Translations under genes and position numbers: made by a program | Notes under the pieces: model-generated | Told to the model about the DNA's origin: nothing | The model's input: the letters and a program-made list of their open reading frames with translations, nothing else | Databases searched by the model: none | Shown here: in pieces, positions 1 to 19,634 of the stretch | Position numbering within the stretch: position 1 is the first letter of the stretch | How the letters are laid out: every line of letters starts with the position of its first letter | Virus record (IMG/VR): IMGVR_UViG_3300025645_000469 | Location: 1 to 23,301 of that record | Direction: 5' to 3' (one strand) | Length of the DNA: 23,301 nucleotides | DNA from: a virus

Positions 1-811
1 TATACATTTCAGGGTTAGAGAATACTTCTTGTTGCATAGTGGCATTACCAGCAACTCTAGCAGCTACTTGCTTATTAGTCTGTCTATCTTGTAGCAGGGT
101 AGCATTAGCTTTAACAGCTTGCTCCATAGACAGTGGATTACCACTGGAATCAGTGAGGATACCACCAGCATCATTTACTTCTTTATACGCAGCCTTAAGT
201 GCAACCTCTTGATTAGCTGCTTGGCTCTTAGCCGCAGCAGTTAGGGTAGCCTGCCTCTCATTCTCTAACATGATGTTACCAGCATGTGTACCAAGGGCTT
301 CATTCTGTGCAGTAATGAACTCAGCACTACGTCCTGGCATTAAGGTAATACCCTTACGAGTAATGTCAGATACCCTAGCTCTCATCTCAGCTTCAGTAAT
401 ATTGCCATTAGCCTTAGCCCTCTGCAACTTAGCTAACTTAGTCTTAGCATCATTAATAGCACCCATCTCCCCCTCTGTCATAGTAGGGGGTTGGAAACCC
501 TCACCACCATACAGTACTGCGTCATCAGCAGTAATAAGAGCATCATTAGCTTGCTTAATCTGGGCATCTAAGGTCACTGCATCAGCAGCTTGGTTAGTGT
601 ATGCCTCAACTACATCAGTAATCTCCCCACTAGTCTGTGCTACATCCTTAGCTACCTTATACTCAAAGGCTTGTGCTCCTGCACTAGCTAATAGACCAGC
701 AAAGGCTTCCTTACCTACATCTCTAGCCCCCTGCTGCACATACATATCAGCACCAGACACAGCACTGGGACGATCTAAGCTAAACATACTACTTTTAGTC
801 TTCTCAGCCAT
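1..811 (-). CDS. Ejection (internal virion) protein, N-terminal part; gene runs off the left edge
   Basis: The frame is open from an ATG at 811-809 to position 1 with no stop, giving at least 270 residues; the C-terminus lies outside the window. The product begins MAEKTKSSMFSLDRPSAVSG and is then almost entirely predicted helix, rich in Ala, Gln, Lys and Glu, with no signal peptide, membrane segment or enzymatic motif visible. Its ATG overlaps the TAA of the 1599-residue gene by one base (TAATG), so translation is probably coupled; a GGGG run about eight bases upstream may add a ribosome site. It follows gp14-like and giant ejection-protein genes, the place of T7 genes 15 and 16, so it most likely joins the trans-envelope DNA ejection channel. 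This role comes from position and composition, not from recognised homology; a tail or structural protein remains possible. Confidence 0.72.
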   Translation of the reverse strand, partial: MAEKTKSSMFSLDRPSAVSGADMYVQQGARDVGKEAFAGLLASAGAQAFEYKVAKDVAQTSGEITDVVEAYTNQAADAVTLDAQIKQANDALITADDAVLYGGEGFQPPTMTEGEMGAINDAKTKLAKLQRAKANGNITEAEMRARVSDITRKGITLMPGRSAEFITAQNEALGTHAGNIMLENERQATLTAAAKSQAANQEVALKAAYKEVNDAGGILTDSSGNPLSMEQAVKANATLLQDRQTNKQVAARVAGNATMQQEVFSNPEMY

Positions 812-3800
812 TACTTAAACCCCATGTCCATTAGTTCCAAGATCTTGTCCTTGTTTTGCTGTGGCATTGCAGACCCCTGTATTGTATTAGATAGTTCTTC
901 TTTTGTGCTGTCACCTGCACCAGACATGTTTATAACAAATGTGGTTAGATTCTGTTCAGTAGTTTCTAATGAATATGTCTCTAATTTAACCAACTCTTTT
1001 TGTACCATAGGCAAAAGCTCTGGCCCCATGAGGGCTTCAGCAGCTTTGATCTGCTCAACCACCCTAAAGAATCCATTCCTATCATGTGGATACATTATCC
1101 TCTGTTTAGCATAGGCATCATGAATCATCTTAGCTGCATCCTTAGCATCTTGATTCATGGTTCCCATCTTACGAGCAGTATTCCATACAGCTTCCTCTGA
1201 GTATGTCTGTAATCCAAACAACTTACCCATAGCCTCTGCATGAGTAGCATCTACGATGGCATCACCATGAGTAGAGACCAACACCCCTGAGTTCATAGCT
1301 ATACGGTACTTAAGACCATCACTGATGCCAGATGCTAGGCTACCTACTGCTACCAAAGAGGAGATTAACTTCTCTTTAGTATCTATTTCAGGTAATGCAG
1401 TGATTACTTTGATATCCTCGTACACCGTCTTGAATCTACCAAAGGCATGGAAGGATGGCCCCATTAATGCAGACACTTCACCATCTAATAGGTGTGTTAG
1501 TATCTCTGCACCGGGGATAATCTTATCACCAATAGGCGACCAGCTATCTGAGAACTTAATGTTAGTACCATCATCCTTATCATCTGACATTGTTCTTAAG
1601 AACGAATTCATGGCTGTATCCAACACACCACCCTTGATACGAATGATCTGATCAGTAGTTAGATCAGTACCATACTCATCCAGTATCTTGGTAATGAGAC
1701 TATCCATACCAACACCAACACCACCAAACATGACAAGGTTCATTGCTGCCAATCTAGCCTTTTCAGACCCCAAGTATCCATACTTAGAAGTAGAGGATAA
1801 GGTTCTGCTACCCCCCAACCCTTCTGATAGTACTGACAGAAACGCCTTATGGGGGACTGACATGAACTGTAAGGGGATAGACAGCATACCCTGTTGGTAC
1901 TTAAAAGATCCCGGCTGATTCATGGCATAGGACAATGCCCTACCATCTGCATCAATGACATCTAAGTATTGCTTATCTGCCCACTTACTAGCAATCTCTG
2001 GGTTAGCCTTCATCCAACGATGTCTAGCAGTTAGCCAACTACCAGTTAAGTTGATGAATTCACCAGTATCAAAACCCGCCTGCTTGGAGATGTCCCTGAT
2101 ACCACGAGGTACTGCTAATGCAGCGTCTGCTGCTCGTTTAATAGGAGTATCCAAGTGACTCTTGTGAATGTCTTTGACGATACCCTCTACATAGATATGA
2201 CTATCAATACTATAGGGTAGGCCTGACCTATCCAAGTATGCCTTAGCAATGTTAGAGTACTCTGCTTCAGTAACACCAAAGAGTTTAGCCCCTATCTTAT
2301 TAGATCCAGCAGTTAGCTTTGCATTGCCCCAAGTAGTACGGGATAGGGACAGGGCTAACAATTCTTTAGGTGCTTGACCACTAAGTAGATACATAGGATT
2401 CACAGCAGCCAACTGGAGTAGCTGAGTAGGCTGTATGTACAACTGACGTAATGGTCTAAGAGCAATGAAGAGGTTGCTAGGCACACTACGAATAGCATTA
2501 ACAGGGGATATGTCAGCTAAGTTGCGAACAGCTTTAGCTGCAAACATACTACCACCCTCTAATGTCTCAGCAGCAGCTAGAATAAAACTCTTCCATCGTA
2601 TGTCAGACACAGAAGCAACAGAGTGCATCATCCCCAACTGCTCATGTATTGTTCTAGCAGCAGCGTAGGCTGCATCATCAGCTAACAATGCCCTAGATAC
2701 ATCCTCAAACTTAGATGGATACACACCATTACTAGCATGACCAAATGTCTTAACCCACCTAGCCTTTGAGCTAGTAAGGAAGTCATCCATAGCTACATAC
2801 TTAGACATAGTACGAATGTTCCTAAACAGGGACTCCATAGGATCTTCAATGGTAGCCAGTGAGTGGTCTATGTCACCATCAAGATGCTCCTTACGACCCT
2901 TAGCTGCATTTACATAGCTCTGTCGTAGCTTGAGGTCACGAACATCAGCATCACCAATCTCATTAGCAAGTCGGACATTGTAATAGTACCCCTCTTCTAC
3001 TGGCAATTGTGCAGCTTTAGCTTGTAGTTGCTTACGACTACTCCCAGCAGCAAGAGCACTGCCATACTTAGCTTCTAGTACAGCAGGGTCTGTAATTAAC
3101 TTACCATCCACACCTAGTTTAATGGGAACTTTATCAAGGAAGTAGTGCTCCTTGTAGGATCTCTGGAAGTATCCCTTAATGTATGGTAATGGGTTAGCTG
3201 GCAAGCTAGACAGAGAGATGCCTTTGTTGTCAATGATTACATGGGTAGTCCTGTTGCCAGCAGTCTTGATACCAGACTGTAACTTGCCTATCTGACCACC
3301 ACCTGCATAGATTTCATCCAGAAGCTCTTTAGTGGCAGGCACTACAGCCTTCTTCACAGTATCATAAACTTCAGTTATGTTCTTAAGATCAATTCTGGCT
3401 AGGGGTTTAACGAACTGCCTACCTAGATCTAGACCTAATCCCTTAATCTCTTTCATACCCTCTGCAACTAAAGACTTGCGGAAGGTTCTGTTAGTCTGCA
3501 TCCATGCTACATCCTGCACCCTACGGTAAGTATAGTATGCTTGGATCTCTTTGTTATCCATACCATACTTAGTAGCTAGCTCAGTAGCAGTCCAGATGTT
3601 ACCATCCCCTACTGCACCCTCTTCAAGAGCAGTGAACAACTTAGCATTGCCTTTACGAGAGAGCTTGGATACATCCCTACGAACCTCATCTAGCAATCTC
3701 TTCTCTACAGCAGTACCAGAGTCTGCTGCCTTAAGAGCAGCCCTAGCCCACCATTGTGGTAGTCTTGCAGTAATGTCCTGCATGTACCCAGCCCACCGCC

Positions 3801-5610
3801 CTTGGGATATGGAAGCAATACCATCAGAACCTAGTGCAGCAGAATCTCTAGCATCAAAGGGTCTAGTAAACTTACGACCTACATAGTAGTTACCCTCGAA
3901 TTCTCCCCTCTTACTGGGGAGGGGCACACGATTACCGGAGATAAGATCCTTACCAGAGATAGCTACCTCAGTGAGTTCATCATTAGCCCCACGTTCATAC
4001 AATACTAGCTCTTCTGCTGGTATGTTATTCTCTATTGCTCGTGCTACAGCACTCTTAGCAGACACAAATCCATTCTCTGCGTCCTTACCATAGATACCAA
4101 TACCACTAATAGATTCACCATCAGTAGTAACAGTAATACCGGGGATCTTACCCCCATCTGGGGTATAGACAGACTTATTAACATGGAGATACAGACCATC
4201 AACAGCCTTCAGGTTGGCCACAGCAGCATTAACAGCAGCCTGCTTCTCTACTGTCTGGTAGTTAATACCAGCAGTGTCTAAGGTAGCTCTCAGATCTGTG
4301 TATAGGTCGTCAATCTCTTGTATACGGTCAATAACATCAGCAGGTAGGTCATTGATTACCTCCTCTGGCATCTTAGGAAGGATGTGCTCTGCTGCAATCT
4401 CAACCTTCTTAGCACCAAGAGCTTTAGCTAACTCCCCACTTTGATCAGTCATAGCAGTAGCAGCTAAGTTAGCAGACTCAGTTTTACTAACTGTACCTGC
4501 TGTCTTTATAACAGATGCTGGATGTACCTTCATTGTCAAAGCACCAGCTTTAAGCAACTTGCCTACAGGAGCTAACACTATAGTGCTATCTAAGATACCT
4601 ACGGCATTATCAATCCATCTTTCCCAATCAGCATACTCACCTGACTCAGCAAAGACATTAAGATAGATCATCTTCTTAAAGTCCCCACCGGGGAGGGCAC
4701 TGATAGCCTCAATCATCTTAGTGGTGAATTCCTTTCTCTTCTCAAAGGGCATAGCAGCTATACCATCACGAAGAGCTTTCTTATTCTCCCCCATAAGAAC
4801 CATACTAAGGGCTTTACCCCCAGCACCTTGATCATCTAGCACAGTGTCTCGTAAAGAGTTAACCATTGCCTGATCTAAGAAGGGTACTACTAACTCCAAC
4901 ACACCAGCAAACCCAGCAGAAATGGAAGGATCAAACTGGACAGCAGCACCATTGATTAGCTGGGCCTTCACACCCTCCCATTGAATCCTCTCATCTAAGC
5001 CAGATAAGTCTATTGGTTTGCCTTTAACTTCTGCTTGTACCAGTTCATTGGCAGCTAGAGTGTTGATGTACTCCTGCCGTAGATCTATTACATCCCCCTT
5101 ACGTGCAATGAACCGCTCTACAACAGACTTCTTAACATCCATAGAGATACTAGGATCACCCAGTACAGATGTTACAGCAGCAACATCTAGTTGCTTGGAC
5201 ATCTTAGTAATATTATTGTATGCCTGTGAGAGTTCATTACTACCCCCAGTAGTAATAAGATCATTTGACATCCTATCAAACTGGGCCTTTGCTTCTGTAG
5301 GATCTGGAGTAATGCCAGTACTATGGTTAATAGTAGAGGCATAATAAGACTCCTCTATTAAAGCAGTGTCTCTGATAGTAGGTTGTTTGTTCTCATCATT
5401 CTTATCTAAGAAGTCCTCAGGATTAGCAGGTGCAGCTTCTGCATCTAAGAACTCTGCTGATTGATCAATACTATCCATCTCTGTATCAGAGATAGCATTG
5501 AATGCCTTATCAGTAGCAACCCCTTGGGTTACATTACGAGTAGCAGCACTAGCATCCTCATAAGGAAGTCCCTGTGCTTTAGCTTCTTCTGGAGTAATAC
5601 CAATAGCCAT
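811..5610 (-). CDS. Giant internal virion (ejectosome) protein, T7 gp15/gp16-like position
   Basis: This is the largest gene in the window (1599 residues) and starts at the ATG at 5610, one base into the TAA of the gp14-like gene. The protein is mostly helical and soluble, with an acidic N-terminus of about 80 residues. Two hydrophobic glycine-containing stretches stand out, near residues 334-355 (AVGILDSTIVLAPVG) and about 1285-1305 (MNLVMFGGVGVGM), which could insert into or cross a membrane. In T7, gp15 and gp16 leave the capsid through the tail and build the tube that carries DNA across the cell envelope; size, order and composition fit a similar job. I saw no lytic transglycosylase signature like the one at the N-terminus of T7 gp16, so any wall-cutting activity must be divergent or lie in another virion protein. 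The class assignment is fairly secure; equivalence to gp15 or gp16 individually is not. Confidence 0.8.
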   Translation of the reverse strand: MAIGITPEEAKAQGLPYEDASAATRNVTQGVATDKAFNAISDTEMDSIDQSAEFLDAEAAPANPEDFLDKNDENKQPTIRDTALIEESYYASTINHSTGITPDPTEAKAQFDRMSNDLITTGGSNELSQAYNNITKMSKQLDVAAVTSVLGDPSISMDVKKSVVERFIARKGDVIDLRQEYINTLAANELVQAEVKGKPIDLSGLDERIQWEGVKAQLINGAAVQFDPSISAGFAGVLELVVPFLDQAMVNSLRDTVLDDQGAGGKALSMVLMGENKKALRDGIAAMPFEKRKEFTTKMIEAISALPGGDFKKMIYLNVFAESGEYADWERWIDNAVGILDSTIVLAPVGKLLKAGALTMKVHPASVIKTAGTVSKTESANLAATAMTDQSGELAKALGAKKVEIAAEHILPKMPEEVINDLPADVIDRIQEIDDLYTDLRATLDTAGINYQTVEKQAAVNAAVANLKAVDGLYLHVNKSVYTPDGGKIPGITVTTDGESISGIGIYGKDAENGFVSAKSAVARAIENNIPAEELVLYERGANDELTEVAISGKDLISGNRVPLPSKRGEFEGNYYVGRKFTRPFDARDSAALGSDGIASISQGRWAGYMQDITARLPQWWARAALKAADSGTAVEKRLLDEVRRDVSKLSRKGNAKLFTALEEGAVGDGNIWTATELATKYGMDNKEIQAYYTYRRVQDVAWMQTNRTFRKSLVAEGMKEIKGLGLDLGRQFVKPLARIDLKNITEVYDTVKKAVVPATKELLDEIYAGGGQIGKLQSGIKTAGNRTTHVIIDNKGISLSSLPANPLPYIKGYFQRSYKEHYFLDKVPIKLGVDGKLITDPAVLEAKYGSALAAGSSRKQLQAKAAQLPVEEGYYYNVRLANEIGDADVRDLKLRQSYVNAAKGRKEHLDGDIDHSLATIEDPMESLFRNIRTMSKYVAMDDFLTSSKARWVKTFGHASNGVYPSKFEDVSRALLADDAAYAAARTIHEQLGMMHSVASVSDIRWKSFILAAAETLEGGSMFAAKAVRNLADISPVNAIRSVPSNLFIALRPLRQLYIQPTQLLQLAAVNPMYLLSGQAPKELLALSLSRTTWGNAKLTAGSNKIGAKLFGVTEAEYSNIAKAYLDRSGLPYSIDSHIYVEGIVKDIHKSHLDTPIKRAADAALAVPRGIRDISKQAGFDTGEFINLTGSWLTARHRWMKANPEIASKWADKQYLDVIDADGRALSYAMNQPGSFKYQQGMLSIPLQFMSVPHKAFLSVLSEGLGGSRTLSSTSKYGYLGSEKARLAAMNLVMFGGVGVGMDSLITKILDEYGTDLTTDQIIRIKGGVLDTAMNSFLRTMSDDKDDGTNIKFSDSWSPIGDKIIPGAEILTHLLDGEVSALMGPSFHAFGRFKTVYEDIKVITALPEIDTKEKLISSLVAVGSLASGISDGLKYRIAMNSGVLVSTHGDAIVDATHAEAMGKLFGLQTYSEEAVWNTARKMGTMNQDAKDAAKMIHDAYAKQRIMYPHDRNGFFRVVEQIKAAEALMGPELLPMVQKELVKLETYSLETTEQNLTTFVINMSGAGDSTKEELSNTIQGSAMPQQNKDKILELMDMGFK
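1592..1603. repeat. 12-bp palindrome GTTCTTAAGAAC in the giant ejection gene
   Basis: This is the fourth exact copy of the 12-bp core. Here the coding frame is different (it encodes SFLRT rather than VLKN), so the repeat is not explained by a shared peptide. A near copy with one mismatch, TGTTCTTAAGATCA, lies at 3378-3391 in the same gene. Confidence 0.65.
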
Positions 5611-6095
5611 TAACCATTTCCTTTATCAGCGATAGTCTTAAAACCACCAGCAGAGGAGAAGATACTAGACCCTAGACCCCCAACAGCACCAAAGATACTA
5701 GCAGTAGACTGAGCACTTGCAGCATCCTGATTGAATGCAGAGGCTTGACTAGACATGGCTTGTAGTTGTTGACTAGTGGCTAACTCAGATGCTAGGCCAG
5801 TTGCCTGCCCTGCAATCGCACCAGCAATACCAGAACTACCTCCTGCACCACTAGTAGAAGCTGCTTGCTCTGCACCAGCCCTCTTAATCCTAGCTTCTCG
5901 TACAGCAGCATACCTGCTACGAGCAGACTGGATATCAGCCTGCCTCTGTTGAATCTCCATAGACTTACGTTGTGCCTTACCTGCCTTAGAACTATTGACA
6001 GCACTACCCACTGCACCAACACCCGCTGCTACAGCACCCACGGCTGCAATAGTTGCGGCATTGGCTACTACATATGCAGAAATCAATCCACTCAT
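5610..6095 (-). CDS. Internal virion protein, T7 gp14-like
   Basis: The 161-residue product starts at the ATG at 6095, overlapping the TGA of the cupin-SET gene by four bases (ATGA). Residues 3-33 form a hydrophobic Ala/Gly/Val stretch. A basic, Gln/Arg-rich helix follows at about 36-75 (RKSMEIQQRQADIQSARSRY), and the remainder is rich in Ala, Gly, Ser and Gln. This matches the style of T7 gp14, the smallest core protein, which forms the outer-membrane part of the ejection channel. Its place directly upstream of a very large ejection protein supports this. The sequence is low in complexity, so the assignment leans on order and composition rather than on specific motifs. Confidence 0.75.
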   Translation of the reverse strand: MSGLISAYVVANAATIAAVGAVAAGVGAVGSAVNSSKAGKAQRKSMEIQQRQADIQSARSRYAAVREARIKRAGAEQAASTSGAGGSSGIAGAIAGQATGLASELATSQQLQAMSSQASAFNQDAASAQSTASIFGAVGGLGSSIFSSAGGFKTIADKGNG

Positions 6096-6940
6096 TCTTC
6101 TATCCTCGTGCTAAGGAACGCATCTATATAATTCACAGTGACTTCATCACCCATAAGACCACCATTACTACCACCAATATCTTCACAAGCGACAAGATCG
6201 ACATCCCCATCATCTGACATTACCATCCTTGCATTAGGCAAGGCAGAGTGGTTAGTGTATCTGCCTGCTGGAGTTCTCTTCCCATCTATCCTACCCTTTG
6301 CTATAATGTCACCCGCTTTAATGGGGGCAGTAGCAAACAAACCCAACCCATGTAACGTAGATGGTCGTACCATCACTGAGTATGTCCCATCTGGGAAGGG
6401 GATCAAGTCTCCTTCATACTCAGCCATCTCCTGTACCTGCTCAGGAGTGAATCCTAAGTACCTACAAGCCTCGTTGTAGTCTTCCCTCTCTAGTTCTATC
6501 ACCTCACTGTAAAGCTCCCCCAGAGCCTCCTCCTGCTCATACAGAGCAACACTGTCAGTGAAGATGTCCTGCTCAATACTAAGGACATCCTTCTTATCAG
6601 TGGAGTAGATGTTAAGCCAGATAGAATCCTCTAGGAATATACCAACCTTCTTACCCGCAGGGGCTACCATCATGTGAGGAGCACTAATAGTTTGCTTAAC
6701 CCCCTCAGGGGTATAGAAGGTACAGCTACCCTTGAGGACTACATTCATCTGTGCATTCTTCTGCTCTCTACCAGTAGCAAATGTACCCGCTGGTACATGC
6801 AACTCTCTGATGTATAGGTTAGGCCCAAAGGTGTGGTACACAGGAGTCTGTGCTTGGGGAGACTTCAGTAAAGCAACCTCGAACTTAACCATCTCCTCTG
6901 GAGTATACTCAGATATGTTCTTAAGAACAGAAAGGTTCAT
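6092..6940 (-). CDS. Cupin-SET fusion protein, probable protein-lysine methyltransferase
   Basis: The start is the ATG at 6940: AGGAG lies seven bases upstream, and the codon overlaps the TGA of the tail-nozzle gene (ATGA). A longer frame from a TTG at 6973 is less likely. The 282-residue product has a cupin-like beta-barrel at about 43-112, containing PAGTF and a late APAGKKVGIF strand, a helical acidic linker at about 115-178, and a C-terminal SET domain at about 187-272. The SET hallmarks are all present in order: HGLGLFA (197-203) for S-adenosylmethionine binding, GRYTNHSALPNA (226-237) matching the NHS-x-PN pseudoknot motif, and GDEVTVNY (264-271) carrying the catalytic tyrosine. SET proteins transfer methyl groups to lysine side chains; the substrate here is unknown. 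The gene sits between gp12-like and gp14-like genes, the slot of T7 gene 13. Domain calls are strong; the virion or host target is inference. Confidence 0.88.
   Translation of the reverse strand: MNLSVLKNISEYTPEEMVKFEVALLKSPQAQTPVYHTFGPNLYIRELHVPAGTFATGREQKNAQMNVVLKGSCTFYTPEGVKQTISAPHMMVAPAGKKVGIFLEDSIWLNIYSTDKKDVLSIEQDIFTDSVALYEQEEALGELYSEVIELEREDYNEACRYLGFTPEQVQEMAEYEGDLIPFPDGTYSVMVRPSTLHGLGLFATAPIKAGDIIAKGRIDGKRTPAGRYTNHSALPNARMVMSDDGDVDLVACEDIGGSNGGLMGDEVTVNYIDAFLSTRIEE
6916..6929. repeat. 14-bp palindrome TGTTCTTAAGAACA at the start of the cupin-SET gene
   Basis: The palindrome falls in codons 4-8 of the cupin-SET gene (SVLKN), just after its start codon and near the gp12/SET junction. 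It is identical to the copy at 13494-13507 including five flanking bases. Confidence 0.75.
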
Positions 6941-9285
6941 GGTGCTTCTCCTGCTATGAATGGAATACTCCAACCCAATAACTCCATGTCCTTGCCAGCC
7001 TCCGATGTAATCTGTATAGACAGAGCCTTCCCTCTACCACGAATCTTATTCTTAGTAGTGATGACAGACTGCCCATAGTCAAAGGTATCATCAGCACCTG
7101 TAGGTATGTAGTTCCTAAGAAGTCTATATGCTTGGAACTGCGGCCCAATCTTGCCACTATTGGCATGATCAGCAAAGTCCCACTTAGCACTAACTAAACA
7201 GCTACTAGGATTGATTGCAGTAAGGGCACCACCCGTATCAATGAACCCCTGCTCAGTCCTTGTGAAGTGAAAGGTTACATACATAGCCTGCTTCCACTTA
7301 GAACTATCTCCTACTATCTCGTACCCTGTGACAAGCTCACTAGTGTAGTCTGCACCCGCCGTATTGTAGGTGTACCAGTCAGCAAAGGTGCTACTTCTAT
7401 AGCTACTGAAAGTAAATAGAAGGTTGCCCGAGGAGTTGGGGAGTATTGTGAGATACTTAGTATAGCCGCTACCCCTAGAGAACTCTCCCCTAGTGACAGC
7501 CACATCAACAGCATTTGCTTGCACTAGGACTCCATTAACAACCACAGGGTTAGCAAAGTCTACTACTGTAAAGGTAGGCATGACAGCAAACCCAGCAACA
7601 TGTGGAGAGTTAGCATCTCCTGATATGTCAGATATGGTATTGGTATAGAAGGCAGTAAGCAGTGTATCAAACACTAACTCTCTATTGTAATTGTGCCTAC
7701 TTGTGACACCATCATAGCCCACCTCATCATTGTAAAGCCATGTAACCTTCCGAGTCTCACTATCAAAAGATCCCTTAGCAAACTTCCTACCAACAGAGGG
7801 TATCGCTGAGTAGTGGCTCTGTATTGTAGTAGCTGAGATGTTCTGTGGACGTAGGTATCCAGAACTCTGGTCATAAGACAGGGTATAGATACCACCAGCA
7901 GCCCAGTACAGGATAGTACCCTCCACTTCTACAATACTAGTAGCACTCAAAGCACCAATACTACCAATCTTATTTACTTGATAACCTAATGCAGTAAAGC
8001 CTGCATCAGTGTCCCCAAGCAATTCCCATACACCATTCTCTGCAATGATGAGTAATGATCTATCAGTAGCAACCATCTTGAAGATGTTACTAGCCTCAGG
8101 TATCTGTATGTATCCACCATCAGTGGCTACAAGATCTGAGATATTCTCTGATGTTGGGTCAGCCTCTTGGTAGCAGTATCCAAGATCATCTACATTAGAT
8201 ACTAACTTAGTAAAGAAGACAAAGCCTGTGTAATCAGGAGACTTAGAGTCTCCATTTGACACATCACTCTGTATACCAGAGTAAAATACTCTACCTGCAT
8301 ATGCAGCAGAAGTAGTAATAGCCCCATTCTCTAAATCTTCTGGTAGACTACTAAAGATTAGATTGTCTGGTGTGAAGTACCCAGTATCTATGTTGATGGA
8401 GTATCCACCCTCATAGAAAATCTCATCTTCAATGACGTTATTGTACAAGGAGGCTTGTTCATTACGACTAGCTCCCCTAGAGAACGCATTGATAACCATC
8501 CTACCCTTGGGGGCTGGAGTATTACCTGCATAGTTACGAACAATCAACTGGGGTTTGAATACTTCTTCAGCACTCTTACCATACACCTGTAGATCTACAT
8601 TAGATGGGTACAATCCAGTACCCGGAGCATCACCATCACCACTAGATCCCCCAGTATTAAACTCTTGTATCTTTTCCATGTCCCAACCCTGATTAAGTAG
8701 GTTGTATTTATGGACATCTGTTAAAGAAGCGGGTCTTTCTGTGACAGTCTTGTCTTCATAGATACCAAAGAAGTCTCTAATGGAGAATAGGATTAGTTCT
8801 GAGGATACAGTGTCTGTATCTTCATCATACACTAGGTAGAATGGCTGAAAGCCCACACCACACACCACTAAGTACCCATTGATACTAGTCAGATCCACTA
8901 AATCATCCCCAGAACCTTCTAATGTAAAGGCACTACCCCCATTCTTGAAGTTAGCAGAGAGATCATCGTGGAACATATCAACAAACCACAACTTATTACC
9001 CACTTGCACTACACCAAAACGTAGGGTGGACTTGTTATTGATACCATACCAGATATCAAACCCTACAGCAGCAGTATCTAGGGATACATTAGTACTACCT
9101 GAGTCTTTTAATAGGTATCCGTTTTCATATTCCATGCCCAGCCTACGTTGAATACTCCCAGTACGGTTCAATAGAAAGTTATCAACCACTTGTGCAGTGT
9201 TTTCAGGATATGAAAGAGGGGATGCCTCCGTCATTAAGCCTTTGACAAAGGTAAAGGAGGTTTTAGTACCCGCAGATACCGGCAT
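6937..9285 (-). CDS. Tail nozzle / tail tubular protein B, T7 gp12-like
   Basis: The 782-residue product starts at the ATG at 9285, immediately after the TAG of the 61-residue gene. The N-terminus (FVKGLMTEASPLSYPENTAQ, then a VVDNFLLNRTGSIQRRLGMEYE stretch) is the typical opening of T7 gp12-like proteins, in which most genome-adjacent loci are followed by a beta-propeller-like body. The rest is beta-rich with repeated aromatic and Gly turns and has no membrane segment. In T7 six copies form the nozzle at the tip of the stubby tail and seal the DNA channel until adsorption. The partner adaptor (gp11-like) is encoded two genes upstream, consistent with joint assembly. The reading frame ends in an ATGA overlap with the cupin-SET gene, so expression of the two is linked. 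Confidence 0.9.
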   Translation of the reverse strand: MPVSAGTKTSFTFVKGLMTEASPLSYPENTAQVVDNFLLNRTGSIQRRLGMEYENGYLLKDSGSTNVSLDTAAVGFDIWYGINNKSTLRFGVVQVGNKLWFVDMFHDDLSANFKNGGSAFTLEGSGDDLVDLTSINGYLVVCGVGFQPFYLVYDEDTDTVSSELILFSIRDFFGIYEDKTVTERPASLTDVHKYNLLNQGWDMEKIQEFNTGGSSGDGDAPGTGLYPSNVDLQVYGKSAEEVFKPQLIVRNYAGNTPAPKGRMVINAFSRGASRNEQASLYNNVIEDEIFYEGGYSINIDTGYFTPDNLIFSSLPEDLENGAITTSAAYAGRVFYSGIQSDVSNGDSKSPDYTGFVFFTKLVSNVDDLGYCYQEADPTSENISDLVATDGGYIQIPEASNIFKMVATDRSLLIIAENGVWELLGDTDAGFTALGYQVNKIGSIGALSATSIVEVEGTILYWAAGGIYTLSYDQSSGYLRPQNISATTIQSHYSAIPSVGRKFAKGSFDSETRKVTWLYNDEVGYDGVTSRHNYNRELVFDTLLTAFYTNTISDISGDANSPHVAGFAVMPTFTVVDFANPVVVNGVLVQANAVDVAVTRGEFSRGSGYTKYLTILPNSSGNLLFTFSSYRSSTFADWYTYNTAGADYTSELVTGYEIVGDSSKWKQAMYVTFHFTRTEQGFIDTGGALTAINPSSCLVSAKWDFADHANSGKIGPQFQAYRLLRNYIPTGADDTFDYGQSVITTKNKIRGRGKALSIQITSEAGKDMELLGWSIPFIAGEAP

Positions 9286-10860: not shown

Positions 10861-11136
10861 CTACTTCCAGTCTCGGTTTAGCCAAGTCTTTAATCTGTGG
10901 CAATTAGCGCACAGAGTTTGTAAGTTGCTCTCACTGTTATCCGTATGATCTCCATCTATATGATCAACATCTAACTGGCAAGTATGGATAGGAACAAACC
11001 CACACAACTCACACTCAGACTTTAAACTAGATCGGTAAGGTTTCTTCTTGCAAGGGGAACAGTACAAGTCCCATTTACCATTCCCTTTGTTAGTTGCATA
11101 ATTATTACAACTAGCATTCTTGCAATTTTGCCTCAC
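10861..11136 (-). CDS. HNH homing-type endonuclease with zinc-binding Cys pairs
   Basis: The 91-residue product shows the classical HNH core: DVDHIDGDHTDN (57-67), Asn71, and a closing CANCH (76-80) that pairs with CELC (42-45) to hold a structural zinc. A second Cys set (C5, C10, C26, C29) may hold another zinc ion. HNH enzymes make single or double-strand DNA cuts, and in phages they are commonly freestanding homing genes. The start is a GTG at 11136 preceded by a GGGGGGTG purine run eight bases upstream. Unlike its neighbours it is flanked by untranslated gaps on both sides (21 and 32 bases) instead of overlaps, which fits an insertion between the 160- and 199-residue head genes. Confidence 0.88.
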   Translation of the reverse strand: MRQNCKNASCNNYATNKGNGKWDLYCSPCKKKPYRSSLKSECELCGFVPIHTCQLDVDHIDGDHTDNSESNLQTLCANCHRLKTWLNRDWK

Positions 11137-16961: not shown

Positions 16962-19634
16962 TTAGATACCCCAGTACTCTCTACCCATGTCATCCAATCC
17001 ACCAGTATACCCCATGTCAATAAGGTACTGTTTCTCCATATCTTGTACTGTACCCTCATACCCCAATGAACTGAGAGCACTCCTCTTAACATCATCAATA
17101 GAACCTGTGGGAGCTACTAGTACTCCAGTATCCATATCAATAGTGACAGCCTCTAGCACTGAACTATCTTTATCTAGGAGGGTACTAACTAGGTATCCAT
17201 CTATATGACTAGACCCTAAGTATCTCTGTACTAGGAGTACTTCATAGTCTGTCAATGCCCTGTCGAAGATGATGAATCGGGCTATACTGCCGGTGAGGGT
17301 GTTGGCGACTGCATCACTCGCAAAGAGTGTCACAAACTGCATGTCTTCCGCGCCCAGATCGCCAACTATTTCCGACAATCCGTTAGCTTGTACTGAGCTT
17401 GTCGTGTCTTTGTTATACCTCACTGTCAGTAATCTTGGGTCAGTATTTGCCGCTCCCGGAATCAAAGATGCACCTGCGTTAATCTGGTAATTCCCAGTGG
17501 TATTAACCGCTTGATAAAGCGCCTTTGTGATGTCGTCCCTTGCATTAGAAATAAATTGTGCAACGCCAGTTAAAGCGTCTAATTTTGCAACCGTGAATTG
17601 AGTTAGTTCGCCAGTAATCAGCGCCGGTGCCACCGTAGTCTCAAGCCCTGCTGCACCGTAACTCTTAACCTCATCCTGCCCGCTGTTCTGGATTACTGCG
17701 CCACCGTGGAGTGTGTAGGTAGCACCATCAGATGACACAAAGGTATCACTATCCAGCCCAGTAGCTGATCGTCCTGCGAGGGCTGGGTTGAAGTCTACTG
17801 CGATGGCTGCGGTGGGTTTGACGGAGCTAAGGGAATCGTCCCATGTCAGGGTCGCTCCTACAGTTAGCGTGTTTACCACAAGCGCCACATAAGTTGTGGT
17901 GGCAGTGGCCGTGAATGGCAAGCTAAAAGCGGTGCCTGCGGCCTGAGCCACGGTAGCGTATGGAGCTGCAGCAACGGGACTATTTGATACGTTTAGCGCA
18001 CCAACAGCCCCACCTATATTTGAGGAAGCAAGGTAAGCATTGAAGACATAAGACACGCCAACAACCGTTGTTATAGCCTTAATCGCTCTCGCGGTACTGC
18101 CATCTGCCCCATTCTCAAGGATAACGACCGTATCGCCATCTTGCACTAAAGGCGCACCGAAACCGGAGTCTGTCCAATCCCCAGCAGGAAGAATATCCTC
18201 CCCAAACTCCAACCCCTGCGGCAAGATACCGCTGATGATACCGGCACGGTGGATTTGGCCTGTGAGGGGTTCGGCTGCGCCTGCGGCATAAGCACCAACT
18301 TCTAAGGTTGCCGTGTTGTCAAAGATAGCGGTCTGCGTAATTGCAACTGCTGATCCAAGTTGTGTCGCTGCTGCAAATGCTGTTGAGACATCTGCCGTGG
18401 GTGCAGATGGAGAGGTGTAAAAGGTAATGTTTGTGCCGATATCTATGGCGGCGAATAACCAGTATCCCGCCCCATCTGCGTAGGGCGTTACAGCGGCTCC
18501 TTGGTAAACACTTGCAGAAGTCCCATCTAGGCTCAAATAACACTGAGGTGTTCCTGCCGTTGGCGAGTGGTCTATCATTAGCGTGAAACCACGTTGGTTG
18601 CCGGTTGGGAGGTGCTTGCTAATAATAGTTTGCCCAGAAGCTGGAGTATTATCCACCGGCTGCACATACCCATAAAGAATACAGTCACCCGTAACACTAT
18701 TAGCAGGACTATCAGCCGCACTCGCATAACTACCCGACACACCATCGAGCAGCATCGCGCCTGAACTGTGTGACCGGAGGTTTGCCGCTGTGCCAAGGAT
18801 GGTGTCGAGGTCGTAGGCGTCACGGTAGATGGCGTTGGTTGATGTCCATACTGCTCCACCTGATGTCAGCGTACTACTCGCATAGTCACTCTGCTCACGG
18901 GCATCCCAGCTTGCGGCTAGGCGGGTGTCGTCGTGGAGGGTGAATCTTTGGATGGTGCCGGTGAAGGGGGAGAGTCCTGATGCGTAAGCGCCAATATCTA
19001 AAGAAGTAGTAGAGGTAAATAACGCCCCTGAAGTTCCAGCTACAGTTGCACCTAATTGGACGAAGGCTCCTCCTGCTGGAGTTGTATAGAAAGTCCATAC
19101 TCCTGTCGATGCTACTCGCTCAACTTTGATGTCGTAACTCTGACCGTCCGTGAGTGTTGGCGCTACCGTTGAGTTTGCACCTAATGTGTTTGTCCCGTCC
19201 GTGGAATACCACACATGCAAACTACCGGCAGGGGAGTTGTCAATGTCAACGATCCACGATTTAGTGCCTGCCCCTACCCACTTCCCCGCCAGCGCCTGAA
19301 ATTCAGCAGGCGTAAAGTCACTCGCAGCCACACCATAGAATGTCCAAGTCTGCACAGCCCCAGTCAACGCCAAGGCACCACTGTCAGGTGTACTCACATA
19401 GGCATCTGTGCCATTGAAGTATGCTGCCTGATTACGGTTAGCCATGTTACGCCAGCGGGTTACTGCACCTGCTGAGGTGGTGATGCCAGATGAGTTGAGA
19501 TCAACCAGTGCTGTACTGATGAGAGCTTGTGTCTCACTCACCTTAGCTAGAGCTTGGTAGTACTGACGCTCAACGTCTGTACCCCTAGAAGCACTACCAA
19601 TTGCACTAGCCATTGCTGTATACTTATTAGTCAT
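16962..19634 (-). CDS. Multi-LamG virion adhesin with compositionally foreign core
   Basis: The 890-residue product starts at the ATG at 19634, directly after the TAG of the small-terminase gene. After a helical N-terminus (1-50) come a LamG/concanavalin-like domain at about 70-235 (AAYFNGTDAYVSTPD opening), a second at about 290-470 (AMLLDGVSGSYASAAD), a jelly-roll carbohydrate-binding-like module at about 482-600 (GDWTDSGFG to LTWDD) and a third LamG-like domain at about 605-806. The C-terminus (807-890) is a different, acidic region with SLGYEGTVQDMEKQYLIDMG. LamG folds commonly bind glycans, so a receptor- or surface-binding virion protein is likely. DNA from about 17,260 to 19,480 is richer in GC and CpG, while both gene ends have the composition of the neighbours, suggesting domain exchange inside a resident gene. 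Whether it attaches to the tail or the capsid is not shown. Confidence 0.82.
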   Translation of the reverse strand: MTNKYTAMASAIGSASRGTDVERQYYQALAKVSETQALISTALVDLNSSGITTSAGAVTRWRNMANRNQAAYFNGTDAYVSTPDSGALALTGAVQTWTFYGVAASDFTPAEFQALAGKWVGAGTKSWIVDIDNSPAGSLHVWYSTDGTNTLGANSTVAPTLTDGQSYDIKVERVASTGVWTFYTTPAGGAFVQLGATVAGTSGALFTSTTSLDIGAYASGLSPFTGTIQRFTLHDDTRLAASWDAREQSDYASSTLTSGGAVWTSTNAIYRDAYDLDTILGTAANLRSHSSGAMLLDGVSGSYASAADSPANSVTGDCILYGYVQPVDNTPASGQTIISKHLPTGNQRGFTLMIDHSPTAGTPQCYLSLDGTSASVYQGAAVTPYADGAGYWLFAAIDIGTNITFYTSPSAPTADVSTAFAAATQLGSAVAITQTAIFDNTATLEVGAYAAGAAEPLTGQIHRAGIISGILPQGLEFGEDILPAGDWTDSGFGAPLVQDGDTVVILENGADGSTARAIKAITTVVGVSYVFNAYLASSNIGGAVGALNVSNSPVAAAPYATVAQAAGTAFSLPFTATATTTYVALVVNTLTVGATLTWDDSLSSVKPTAAIAVDFNPALAGRSATGLDSDTFVSSDGATYTLHGGAVIQNSGQDEVKSYGAAGLETTVAPALITGELTQFTVAKLDALTGVAQFISNARDDITKALYQAVNTTGNYQINAGASLIPGAANTDPRLLTVRYNKDTTSSVQANGLSEIVGDLGAEDMQFVTLFASDAVANTLTGSIARFIIFDRALTDYEVLLVQRYLGSSHIDGYLVSTLLDKDSSVLEAVTIDMDTGVLVAPTGSIDDVKRSALSSLGYEGTVQDMEKQYLIDMGYTGGLDDMGREYWGI

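What the first reader, a model, noticed from the sequence alone, without database searches (positions are those of the whole stretch)
6092..6940. Cupin-SET fusion in the T7 gene 13 slot: a candidate virion-associated lysine methyltransferase
The sequence shows a complete SET signature (HGLGLFA, GRYTNHSALPNA, GDEVTVNY) fused C-terminal to a cupin-like barrel, and the gene is locked by ATGA overlaps between nozzle and gp14-like genes. SET domains are eukaryote-typical protein-lysine methyltransferases, rare in phage structural operons. The gp13 slot in T7-like phages holds a small protein often annotated, to my recollection, as an acetyltransferase-like fold, so this slot may be reserved for enzymes that modify lysines of virion or host proteins. 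Whether the enzyme acts on ejection proteins during assembly or is carried into the cell is inference. A cupin plus SET architecture at this place is not one I know as described.
Basis: partly seen in the sequence, partly recalled or inferred. Interest (0 to 1): 0.82.

Follow-up and report, generated by a model that had tools for sequence, protein, structure and literature searches.

The report
Phage cupin-SET methyltransferase before ejection genes
A short-tailed phage carries, immediately before its DNA-ejection-channel genes, a gene for a cupin barrel fused to an intact-looking SET protein-lysine methyltransferase; hundreds of environmental phages share it, and related phages put an acetyltransferase or a bare cupin in the same place, suggesting a little-known protein-modification step in building or using the ejection machine.

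Summary
Confirmed, with corrections. The gene (minus strand, 6940-6092, 282 aa) encodes a cupin barrel, a helical linker and a C-terminal minimal SET domain. Evidence: Pfam SET in 37/37 relatives; AlphaFold pLDDT 91.6; all 50 top PDB matches of the SET part are protein-lysine methyltransferase SET domains; GxG, Asn and catalytic Tyr are 130/130 in distinct homologues. About 490 viral contigs encode relatives. The gene almost always lies directly before the first ejection-protein gene. A reverse search from ejection proteins found a cupin there in 77/77 loci, 68 with SET. Most of these phages have a P22-gp10-like hub; the window has a T7-type nozzle. In roseophage SIO1, whose nozzle and gp14-like proteins are homologous to the window's, this slot holds a GNAT acetyltransferase. 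So an exchangeable amine-modifying-enzyme slot is supported. 'Virion-associated' is not: the T7-slot analogue gp13 was absent from a phiPsa17 virion proteome. The first ejection protein is excluded as a universal lysine substrate (six SET-bearing phages encode one without lysine). Best reading: a late, assembly-time lysine methyltransferase of unknown substrate, most likely the lysine-rich later ejection proteins. Activity is untested.

The parts
6092..6940 (-). cupin-SET gene (282 aa), phrog_34170
   Evidence: phrog_34170 E=4.6e-73; start supported by AGGAG shortly upstream of the ATG, ATGA overlaps both sides
6551..6853 (-). cupin (jelly-roll) domain, residues ~30-130; no classical metal motif
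   Evidence: AF2 model and Foldseek PDB cupins, best E=9.9e-6; N-terminal match to phrog_12032/24280; motif test 0/130
6407..6550 (-). helical linker, residues 131-178, the least conserved part
   Evidence: AF2 secondary structure; mean column conservation 0.46 against 0.68 in the two domains
6116..6400 (-). minimal SET domain, residues ~181-275
   Evidence: Pfam SET; SET-only AF2 model pLDDT 90.7; Foldseek PDB top 50 all SET methyltransferases
6341..6349 (-). GxG motif (G198-L-G200), presumed AdoMet site
   Evidence: G198 and G200 130/130 in distinct homologues
6245..6253 (-). NHS motif (N230-H231-S232) inside RYTNHSALPN
   Evidence: N230 130/130, H231 129/130, S232 104/130
6128..6130 (-). 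catalytic Tyr271 of EVTVNY
   Evidence: Y271 130/130, E266 130/130
6937..9285 (-). tail nozzle / tail appendage (T7 gp12 position), upstream neighbour
   Evidence: phrog_8094 E=2e-189; 31% identity to SIO1p30 over 793 columns, E=2e-99
5610..6095 (-). gp14-like small first ejection protein, downstream neighbour
   Evidence: phrog_8168 E=6e-24; 36% identity to SIO1p28, E=4e-6
811..5610 (-). large internal virion/ejection protein (1599 aa, 7% Lys), candidate substrate
   Evidence: phrog_18427 1e-78 and phrog_12003 'internal virion protein' 3e-41; 112 Lys

Best explanation
A late-expressed, assembly-time protein-lysine methyltransferase. SHOWN by computation: cupin fold plus minimal SET fold with all catalytic signatures; conserved position directly upstream of ejection-protein genes and overlapping their translation start; the same slot is filled in relatives by a bare cupin, a GNAT acetyltransferase or other small proteins. 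INFERRED: the cupin barrel is the targeting or scaffold module that recognises an ejection or tail component as it is made (it persists without SET), and the SET domain uses AdoMet to methylate lysines of a virion-building protein, most likely the large lysine-rich second or third ejection proteins, changing their charge or protease behaviour, DNA contacts or refolding during ejection. The enzyme probably does not stay in the virion. GNATs in the same slot would modify the same kind of amine by acetylation. The substrate and the effect are guesses.
For: SET family and fold. Cupin fold. Catalytic residues invariant across 130 distinct sequences, hence selected. Position: of 79 loci with a downstream gene (window included), 75 encode a recognisable first ejection protein there (72 P22-gp7-type by profile, 3 T7-gp14-type); L009 is resolved by overlapping locus L145; the other three (L046, L067, L075) have a similar-sized Ala/Gly-rich ORF. 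Reverse search from ejection proteins: cupin in the slot in 77/77, SET in 68. Gene fission: L186 encodes cupin and SET as adjacent overlapping genes, and L184 a stand-alone SET gene just before a gp14-like ORF and an internal-virion-type transglycosylase. SET gained or lost at least twice on the cupin tree. Slot exchange with GNAT: SIO1 and 10 contigs. Non-virion analogy: T7-type gp13 not among phiPsa17 virion proteins; Pfam names gp13 'probable scaffold'. Later ejection proteins are lysine-rich, ~7% and 6.4% against 2.3% for the first.
Against: No activity or virion data for any member. No lysine column is invariant in the first, second or third ejection protein (best 67%, 51%, 33% in the main clusters), so no substrate is visible. 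The slot is empty in five nozzle relatives (one of them, L325, at a contig end) and in SP6, so it is not essential to the architecture. The SET-I insert that helps bind substrate is very short (about 10 residues where the MLL1 alignment has 44), so substrate binding may differ.
Confidence: 0.5

Rival explanations
1. Virion-carried effector: the protein is packaged, enters the cell with the ejection proteins, and methylates host proteins at the start of infection.
For: Position among ejection genes. SET effectors acting on a host are known in other systems (general knowledge).
Against: No ejection-associated feature was seen. The T7-slot analogue gp13 was not detected in phiPsa17 virions although gp12, gp14, gp15 and gp16 were. 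The gene is replaced by GNAT, cupin or nothing in relatives.
Confidence: 0.12
2. Late enzyme acting on a host protein during phage production (for example translation or envelope factors), with the ejection-operon position only giving late timing.
For: No conserved lysine in ejection proteins; six first ejection proteins have no lysine at all.
Against: The tight linkage to ejection genes across P22-hub and T7-nozzle phages and in a stand-alone SET gene is hard to explain by timing alone.
Confidence: 0.18
3. Structural or accessory tail protein: the cupin is a virion or tail component ('short tail fiber', 'tail fiber adhesin' in PHROGs and RefSeq) and the SET part is a decorative beta fold.
For: PHROG names of the cupin-only relatives; cupin conserved without SET.
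Against: GxG, N, E and Y invariant in 130/130 sequences indicate selection on catalysis. The fibre names rest on no experiment found here; the VvAW1 paper calls its protein a hypothetical phage protein (PHA00672).
Confidence: 0.12
4. SET acts on the cupin itself or on small molecules or other non-lysine targets rather than on another protein's lysine.
For: K98 of the cupin is invariant in 130/130 SET-bearing proteins.
Against: The K98 region is shared with cupin-only proteins, so it is not tied to SET. SET domains overwhelmingly modify protein lysine (general knowledge).
Confidence: 0.08

Closest known systems
SET-domain protein-lysine methyltransferases (Pfam PF00856), e.g. MLL1 and the algal-virus enzyme vSET (PBCV-1 A612L)
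   Same: Fold and signatures: GxG, RYxNHSxxPN, ExTxxY; profile hit to MLL1 3e-7, vSET 5e-4; Foldseek MLL1 E=3e-6, vSET TM 0.64 by target length
   Different: SET-I nearly absent; aliphatic residue (I/V/L) just before the DY of the last motif where MLL1 has Tyr; fused to a cupin; inside a phage ejection operon; activity untested
phrog_34170 (PHROGs, unknown function)
   Same: Full-length match 4.6e-73; phage proteins of the same cupin-SET architecture include Rhodoferax phage P26218 (by direct alignment)
   Different: That family carries no function; one cupin-SET protein (MW202744) is annotated by structural similarity as 'pbcV-1 histone H3-lys 27 methyltransferase structure'
Cupin-only phage proteins, phrog_12032/24280, PHA00672 (VvAW1 gp04, BA3_0007, BPP-1 Bbp23)
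   Same: Homologous N-terminal barrel; several in the same slot before the ejection gene
   Different: No SET domain; BPP-1 Bbp23 and the Alteromonas H4/4 protein lie near the portal instead
GNAT acetyltransferase of the SIO1/cobavirus slot (phrog_1249) and its proposed T7 counterpart gp13
   Same: Same position between a homologous nozzle and a homologous gp14-like gene; amine-modifying enzyme. The cobavirus paper already equated pc40 with gp13 (PMC6775973)
   Different: Unrelated fold; acetyl rather than methyl transfer

Membership tests
SET-domain protein-lysine methyltransferase | SET fold | tested here: met
   AF2 pLDDT 90.7, pTM 0.83; top 50 PDB matches all SET methyltransferases
SET-domain protein-lysine methyltransferase | GxG, NHxxxPN and catalytic Tyr motifs | tested here: met
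   130/130, 130/130 (N) with 129/130 (H), 130/130
SET-domain protein-lysine methyltransferase | SET pseudoknot topology | not tested
   Implied by the fold match only; model coordinates were not analysed
SET-domain protein-lysine methyltransferase | SET-I insert contributing to the substrate groove | tested here: inconclusive
   About 10 profile positions between the two matched blocks against 44 residues in MLL1
SET-domain protein-lysine methyltransferase | AdoMet-dependent lysine methylation | not testable with these tools
   No experiment available
Cupin superfamily | double-stranded beta-helix fold | tested here: met
   Foldseek top PDB matches are cupins
Cupin superfamily | classical metal motif 1 G(X)5HXH(X)3-4E(X)6G | tested here: not met
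   0/130 cupin-SET and 0/21 cupin-only proteins; a cupin fold, not shown to be a metal enzyme
T7 gp13 (PF11090 / phrog_308) | sequence family | tested here: not met
   Pfam and PHROG scans give no such match; T7 gp13 itself matches both
T7 gp13 (PF11090 / phrog_308) | position between nozzle and gp14-like gene | tested here: met
phrog_34170 | full-length profile match | tested here: met
   E=4.6e-73, residues 7-275 to profile 10-279 of 296
Virion protein | presence in purified particles | not testable with these tools
   No proteomics for any cupin-SET phage found; slot analogue gp13 not detected in phiPsa17

The most novel reading that the evidence does not exclude
Short-tailed phages have a dedicated 'ejection-slot' class of assembly enzymes, exchangeable between lysine methylation (cupin-SET) and acetylation (GNAT), that chemically tune the ejection proteins before packaging so that they can unfold, pass the tail and rebuild a channel. 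T7 gp13 and P22 gp14, whose roles are obscure, would be members by function.
Probability: 0.25. Interest if true: 0.85.

Novelty: new variant of a known kind. Interest (0 to 1): 0.62.

Why it matters
Protein-lysine methylation by SET enzymes is mostly studied in eukaryotes, giant viruses and a few bacterial effectors. A SET enzyme fixed in the ejection operon of hundreds of environmental phages, interchangeable with an acetyltransferase, would mean that the ejection machine is built or activated with post-translational modification. It would also give a concrete test for what the long-unexplained gene between the phage tail and ejection genes (T7 gene 13, P22 gene 14) does.

Tried and rejected
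(1) Single-sequence scan of viral contigs found nothing; the six-sequence alignment then found 492. (2) Conserved lysine in the downstream ejection proteins as substrate signature: none; six SET+ phages encode a first ejection protein with zero lysine, so that substrate is rejected as universal. The second and third proteins align poorly and remain open. (3) Tail-fibre reading of the cupin: only inherited names. (4) Testing T7 gp13 and P22 gp14 as GNAT folds by sequence: weak (E=0.39) or negative; P22 gp14 homologues retrieved were 94-100% identical, too uniform for a profile test. (5) The ~100-aa slot protein of 50 nozzle loci as a degenerate GNAT: hhalign probability 2%, P=0.02, in the expected register, a lead only. 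(6) Relatives of the L186 and L184 stand-alone SET proteins in viral contigs: none. (8) The Hardies 2016 phiRIO-1 virion-proteome paper was not held.

Full report
OBSERVATION. The window is a 23.3-kb viral contig with a T7-type structural module on the minus strand: TerL, portal, scaffold, capsid, tail tube A, nozzle, the gene in question, a gp14-like protein and a 1599-aa internal virion protein. The gene runs 6940->6092, 282 codons, with AGGAG upstream of its ATG and ATGA overlaps with both neighbours.

DOMAINS. Pfam recognises SET (25.0 bits, cut-off 22.4), and all 37 diverse relatives match SET (best 1.1e-9). A profile of the family finds MLL1 (3e-7), EZH2 and vSET among PDB sequences. AlphaFold with 37 sequences gives pLDDT 91.6, pTM 0.87. 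Foldseek matches the N-terminal half to cupins and the C-terminal part, folded alone (pLDDT 90.7), to SET methyltransferases only in the first 50 hits. In 130 distinct homologues G198, G200, N230, E266 and Y271 are invariant and H231 is 129/130; the cupin lacks the classical metal motif in all of them. The SET-I insert is unusually short, and the residue before the DY of the last motif is aliphatic (I/V/L, 128/130). From general knowledge of the F/Y switch this may allow more than one methyl group; that is inference.

DISTRIBUTION AND PLACE. 492 viral-contig stretches encode relatives, as do a handful of sequenced phages (Rhodoferax P26218, Pseudoalteromonas PH1, zth2-2, Manatee Spring genomes) and some bacterial or metagenome assemblies. 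The next gene downstream is a first ejection protein in 75 of 79 loci by homology (72 P22-gp7-type, 3 T7-gp14-type); L009 is resolved by overlapping locus L145, and three carry a similar-looking but unmatched ORF. The upstream gene is usually a P22-gp10-like hub or a small protein; a T7-type nozzle is the minority (window, L008 and its overlapping locus L275, L276, L082). Searching instead with ejection proteins, the gene before them is a cupin in 77/77 loci, 68 with SET (one frameshifted, L126) and 9 without. The query set was seeded mainly with SET-associated ejection proteins and some contigs recur, so the proportion of SET is biased; the cupin linkage is not in doubt.

MODULARITY. Cupin-only homologues occupy the same slot in Vibrio phages VvAW1 and 234P9, Thalassomonas BA3, Dickeya Amaethon, Vibrio 1.067.O and Sphaerotilus R1. 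On a tree of cupin domains SET changes state three times, at least two forced by well-supported branches (a quick tree with long branches, so only a rough count). In Paraburkholderia ferrariae the cupin and SET are separate overlapping genes (L186); in a Comamonadaceae contig a stand-alone SET gene precedes a gp14-like ORF and a transglycosylase of internal-virion type (L184).

THE SLOT. In roseophage SIO1 the nozzle (31% identity over 793 columns, E=2e-99) and gp14-like protein (36%, E=4e-6, same PHROG) are homologous to the window's, and between them lies a GNAT acetyltransferase (Pfam Acetyltransf_1 above cut-off; phrog_1249). The same PHROG matches BPP-1 Bbp24, the neighbour of the cupin Bbp23. 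A nozzle-anchored survey of 77 contigs found GNAT in 10 (Pfam 10/10; PDB profile 3.5e-10), cupin-SET in 2, cupin in 4 (one truncated by a contig end), a ~100-aa family of unknown nature in 50, weak P22-gp14-like proteins in 2, nothing in 5 (one at a contig end), and 4 undetermined. The cobavirus paper had already suggested that the GNAT pc40 corresponds to T7 gp13 (PMC6775973). T7 gp13 itself gives only a weak GNAT hint and P22 gp14 none.

MECHANISM. The gene is embedded, with overlapping start and stop codons, among structural genes, so early takeover is unlikely. In T7-like phiPsa17 the gp13 homologue is missing from a virion proteome that contains gp12, gp14, gp15 and gp16 (PMC4517105); by analogy of position, not homology, the slot product is an assembly factor rather than a virion part. 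The first ejection protein is lysine-poor and has no lysine in six SET+ loci; no lysine is invariant in the first three ejection proteins. The later ejection proteins are lysine-rich (window: 112 Lys in 1599). I therefore favour methylation of later ejection proteins or of a tail or portal component during assembly, guided by the cupin. Fold and motifs are shown; enzymatic activity is very likely but inferred; substrate and effect are speculative.

NOVELTY. SET proteins are annotated sporadically in phages, and phrog_34170 exists without a function. My searches of the open library found no paper describing this architecture or slot; the library is incomplete. I file it as a new variant of a known kind: a SET methyltransferase with new architecture and context.

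Noticed in passing
L273:13268-13729 (SIO1, minus) and L277, L295, L320, L330, L337, L341, L344, L346, L350, L353: GNAT acetyltransferases sit in the slot homologous to the window's cupin-SET gene, between nozzle and gp14-like genes.
   Followed up: yes
L278-L343, e.g. L306:6222-6527: A ~100-aa protein family of unknown fold fills the slot in 50 of 77 nozzle-anchored contigs; alignment register hints at the C-terminal half of a GNAT, but the statistics are weak.
   Followed up: partly
L328:6433-6951: One contig has a P-loop, sulfotransferase-like 172-aa ORF in the slot (sequence impression only).
   Followed up: no
window 10861-11136 (-): HNH endonuclease gene (Pfam HNH 26.2 bits) inserted between the capsid/tail genes, probably a homing endonuclease.
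   Followed up: no
window 16962-19634 (-): 890-aa protein with repeated laminin-G/concanavalin-like segments (sequence impression) between TerL and a terminase-small-like gene; no Pfam hit.
   Followed up: no
L031, L036, L044, L052, L074, L085: First ejection proteins of 198-259 aa containing no lysine at all, next to lysine-rich second ejection proteins where those are present.
   Followed up: partly
L186:7201-8648 (Paraburkholderia ferrariae NBRC 106233): Cupin and SET encoded as two overlapping genes near replication genes, without ejection genes detected in the fetched stretch.
   Followed up: partly
L126:325-1161: A cupin-SET locus whose cupin part is broken by apparent frameshifts while the SET ORF and the ejection gene are intact; could be sequencing error.
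   Followed up: no
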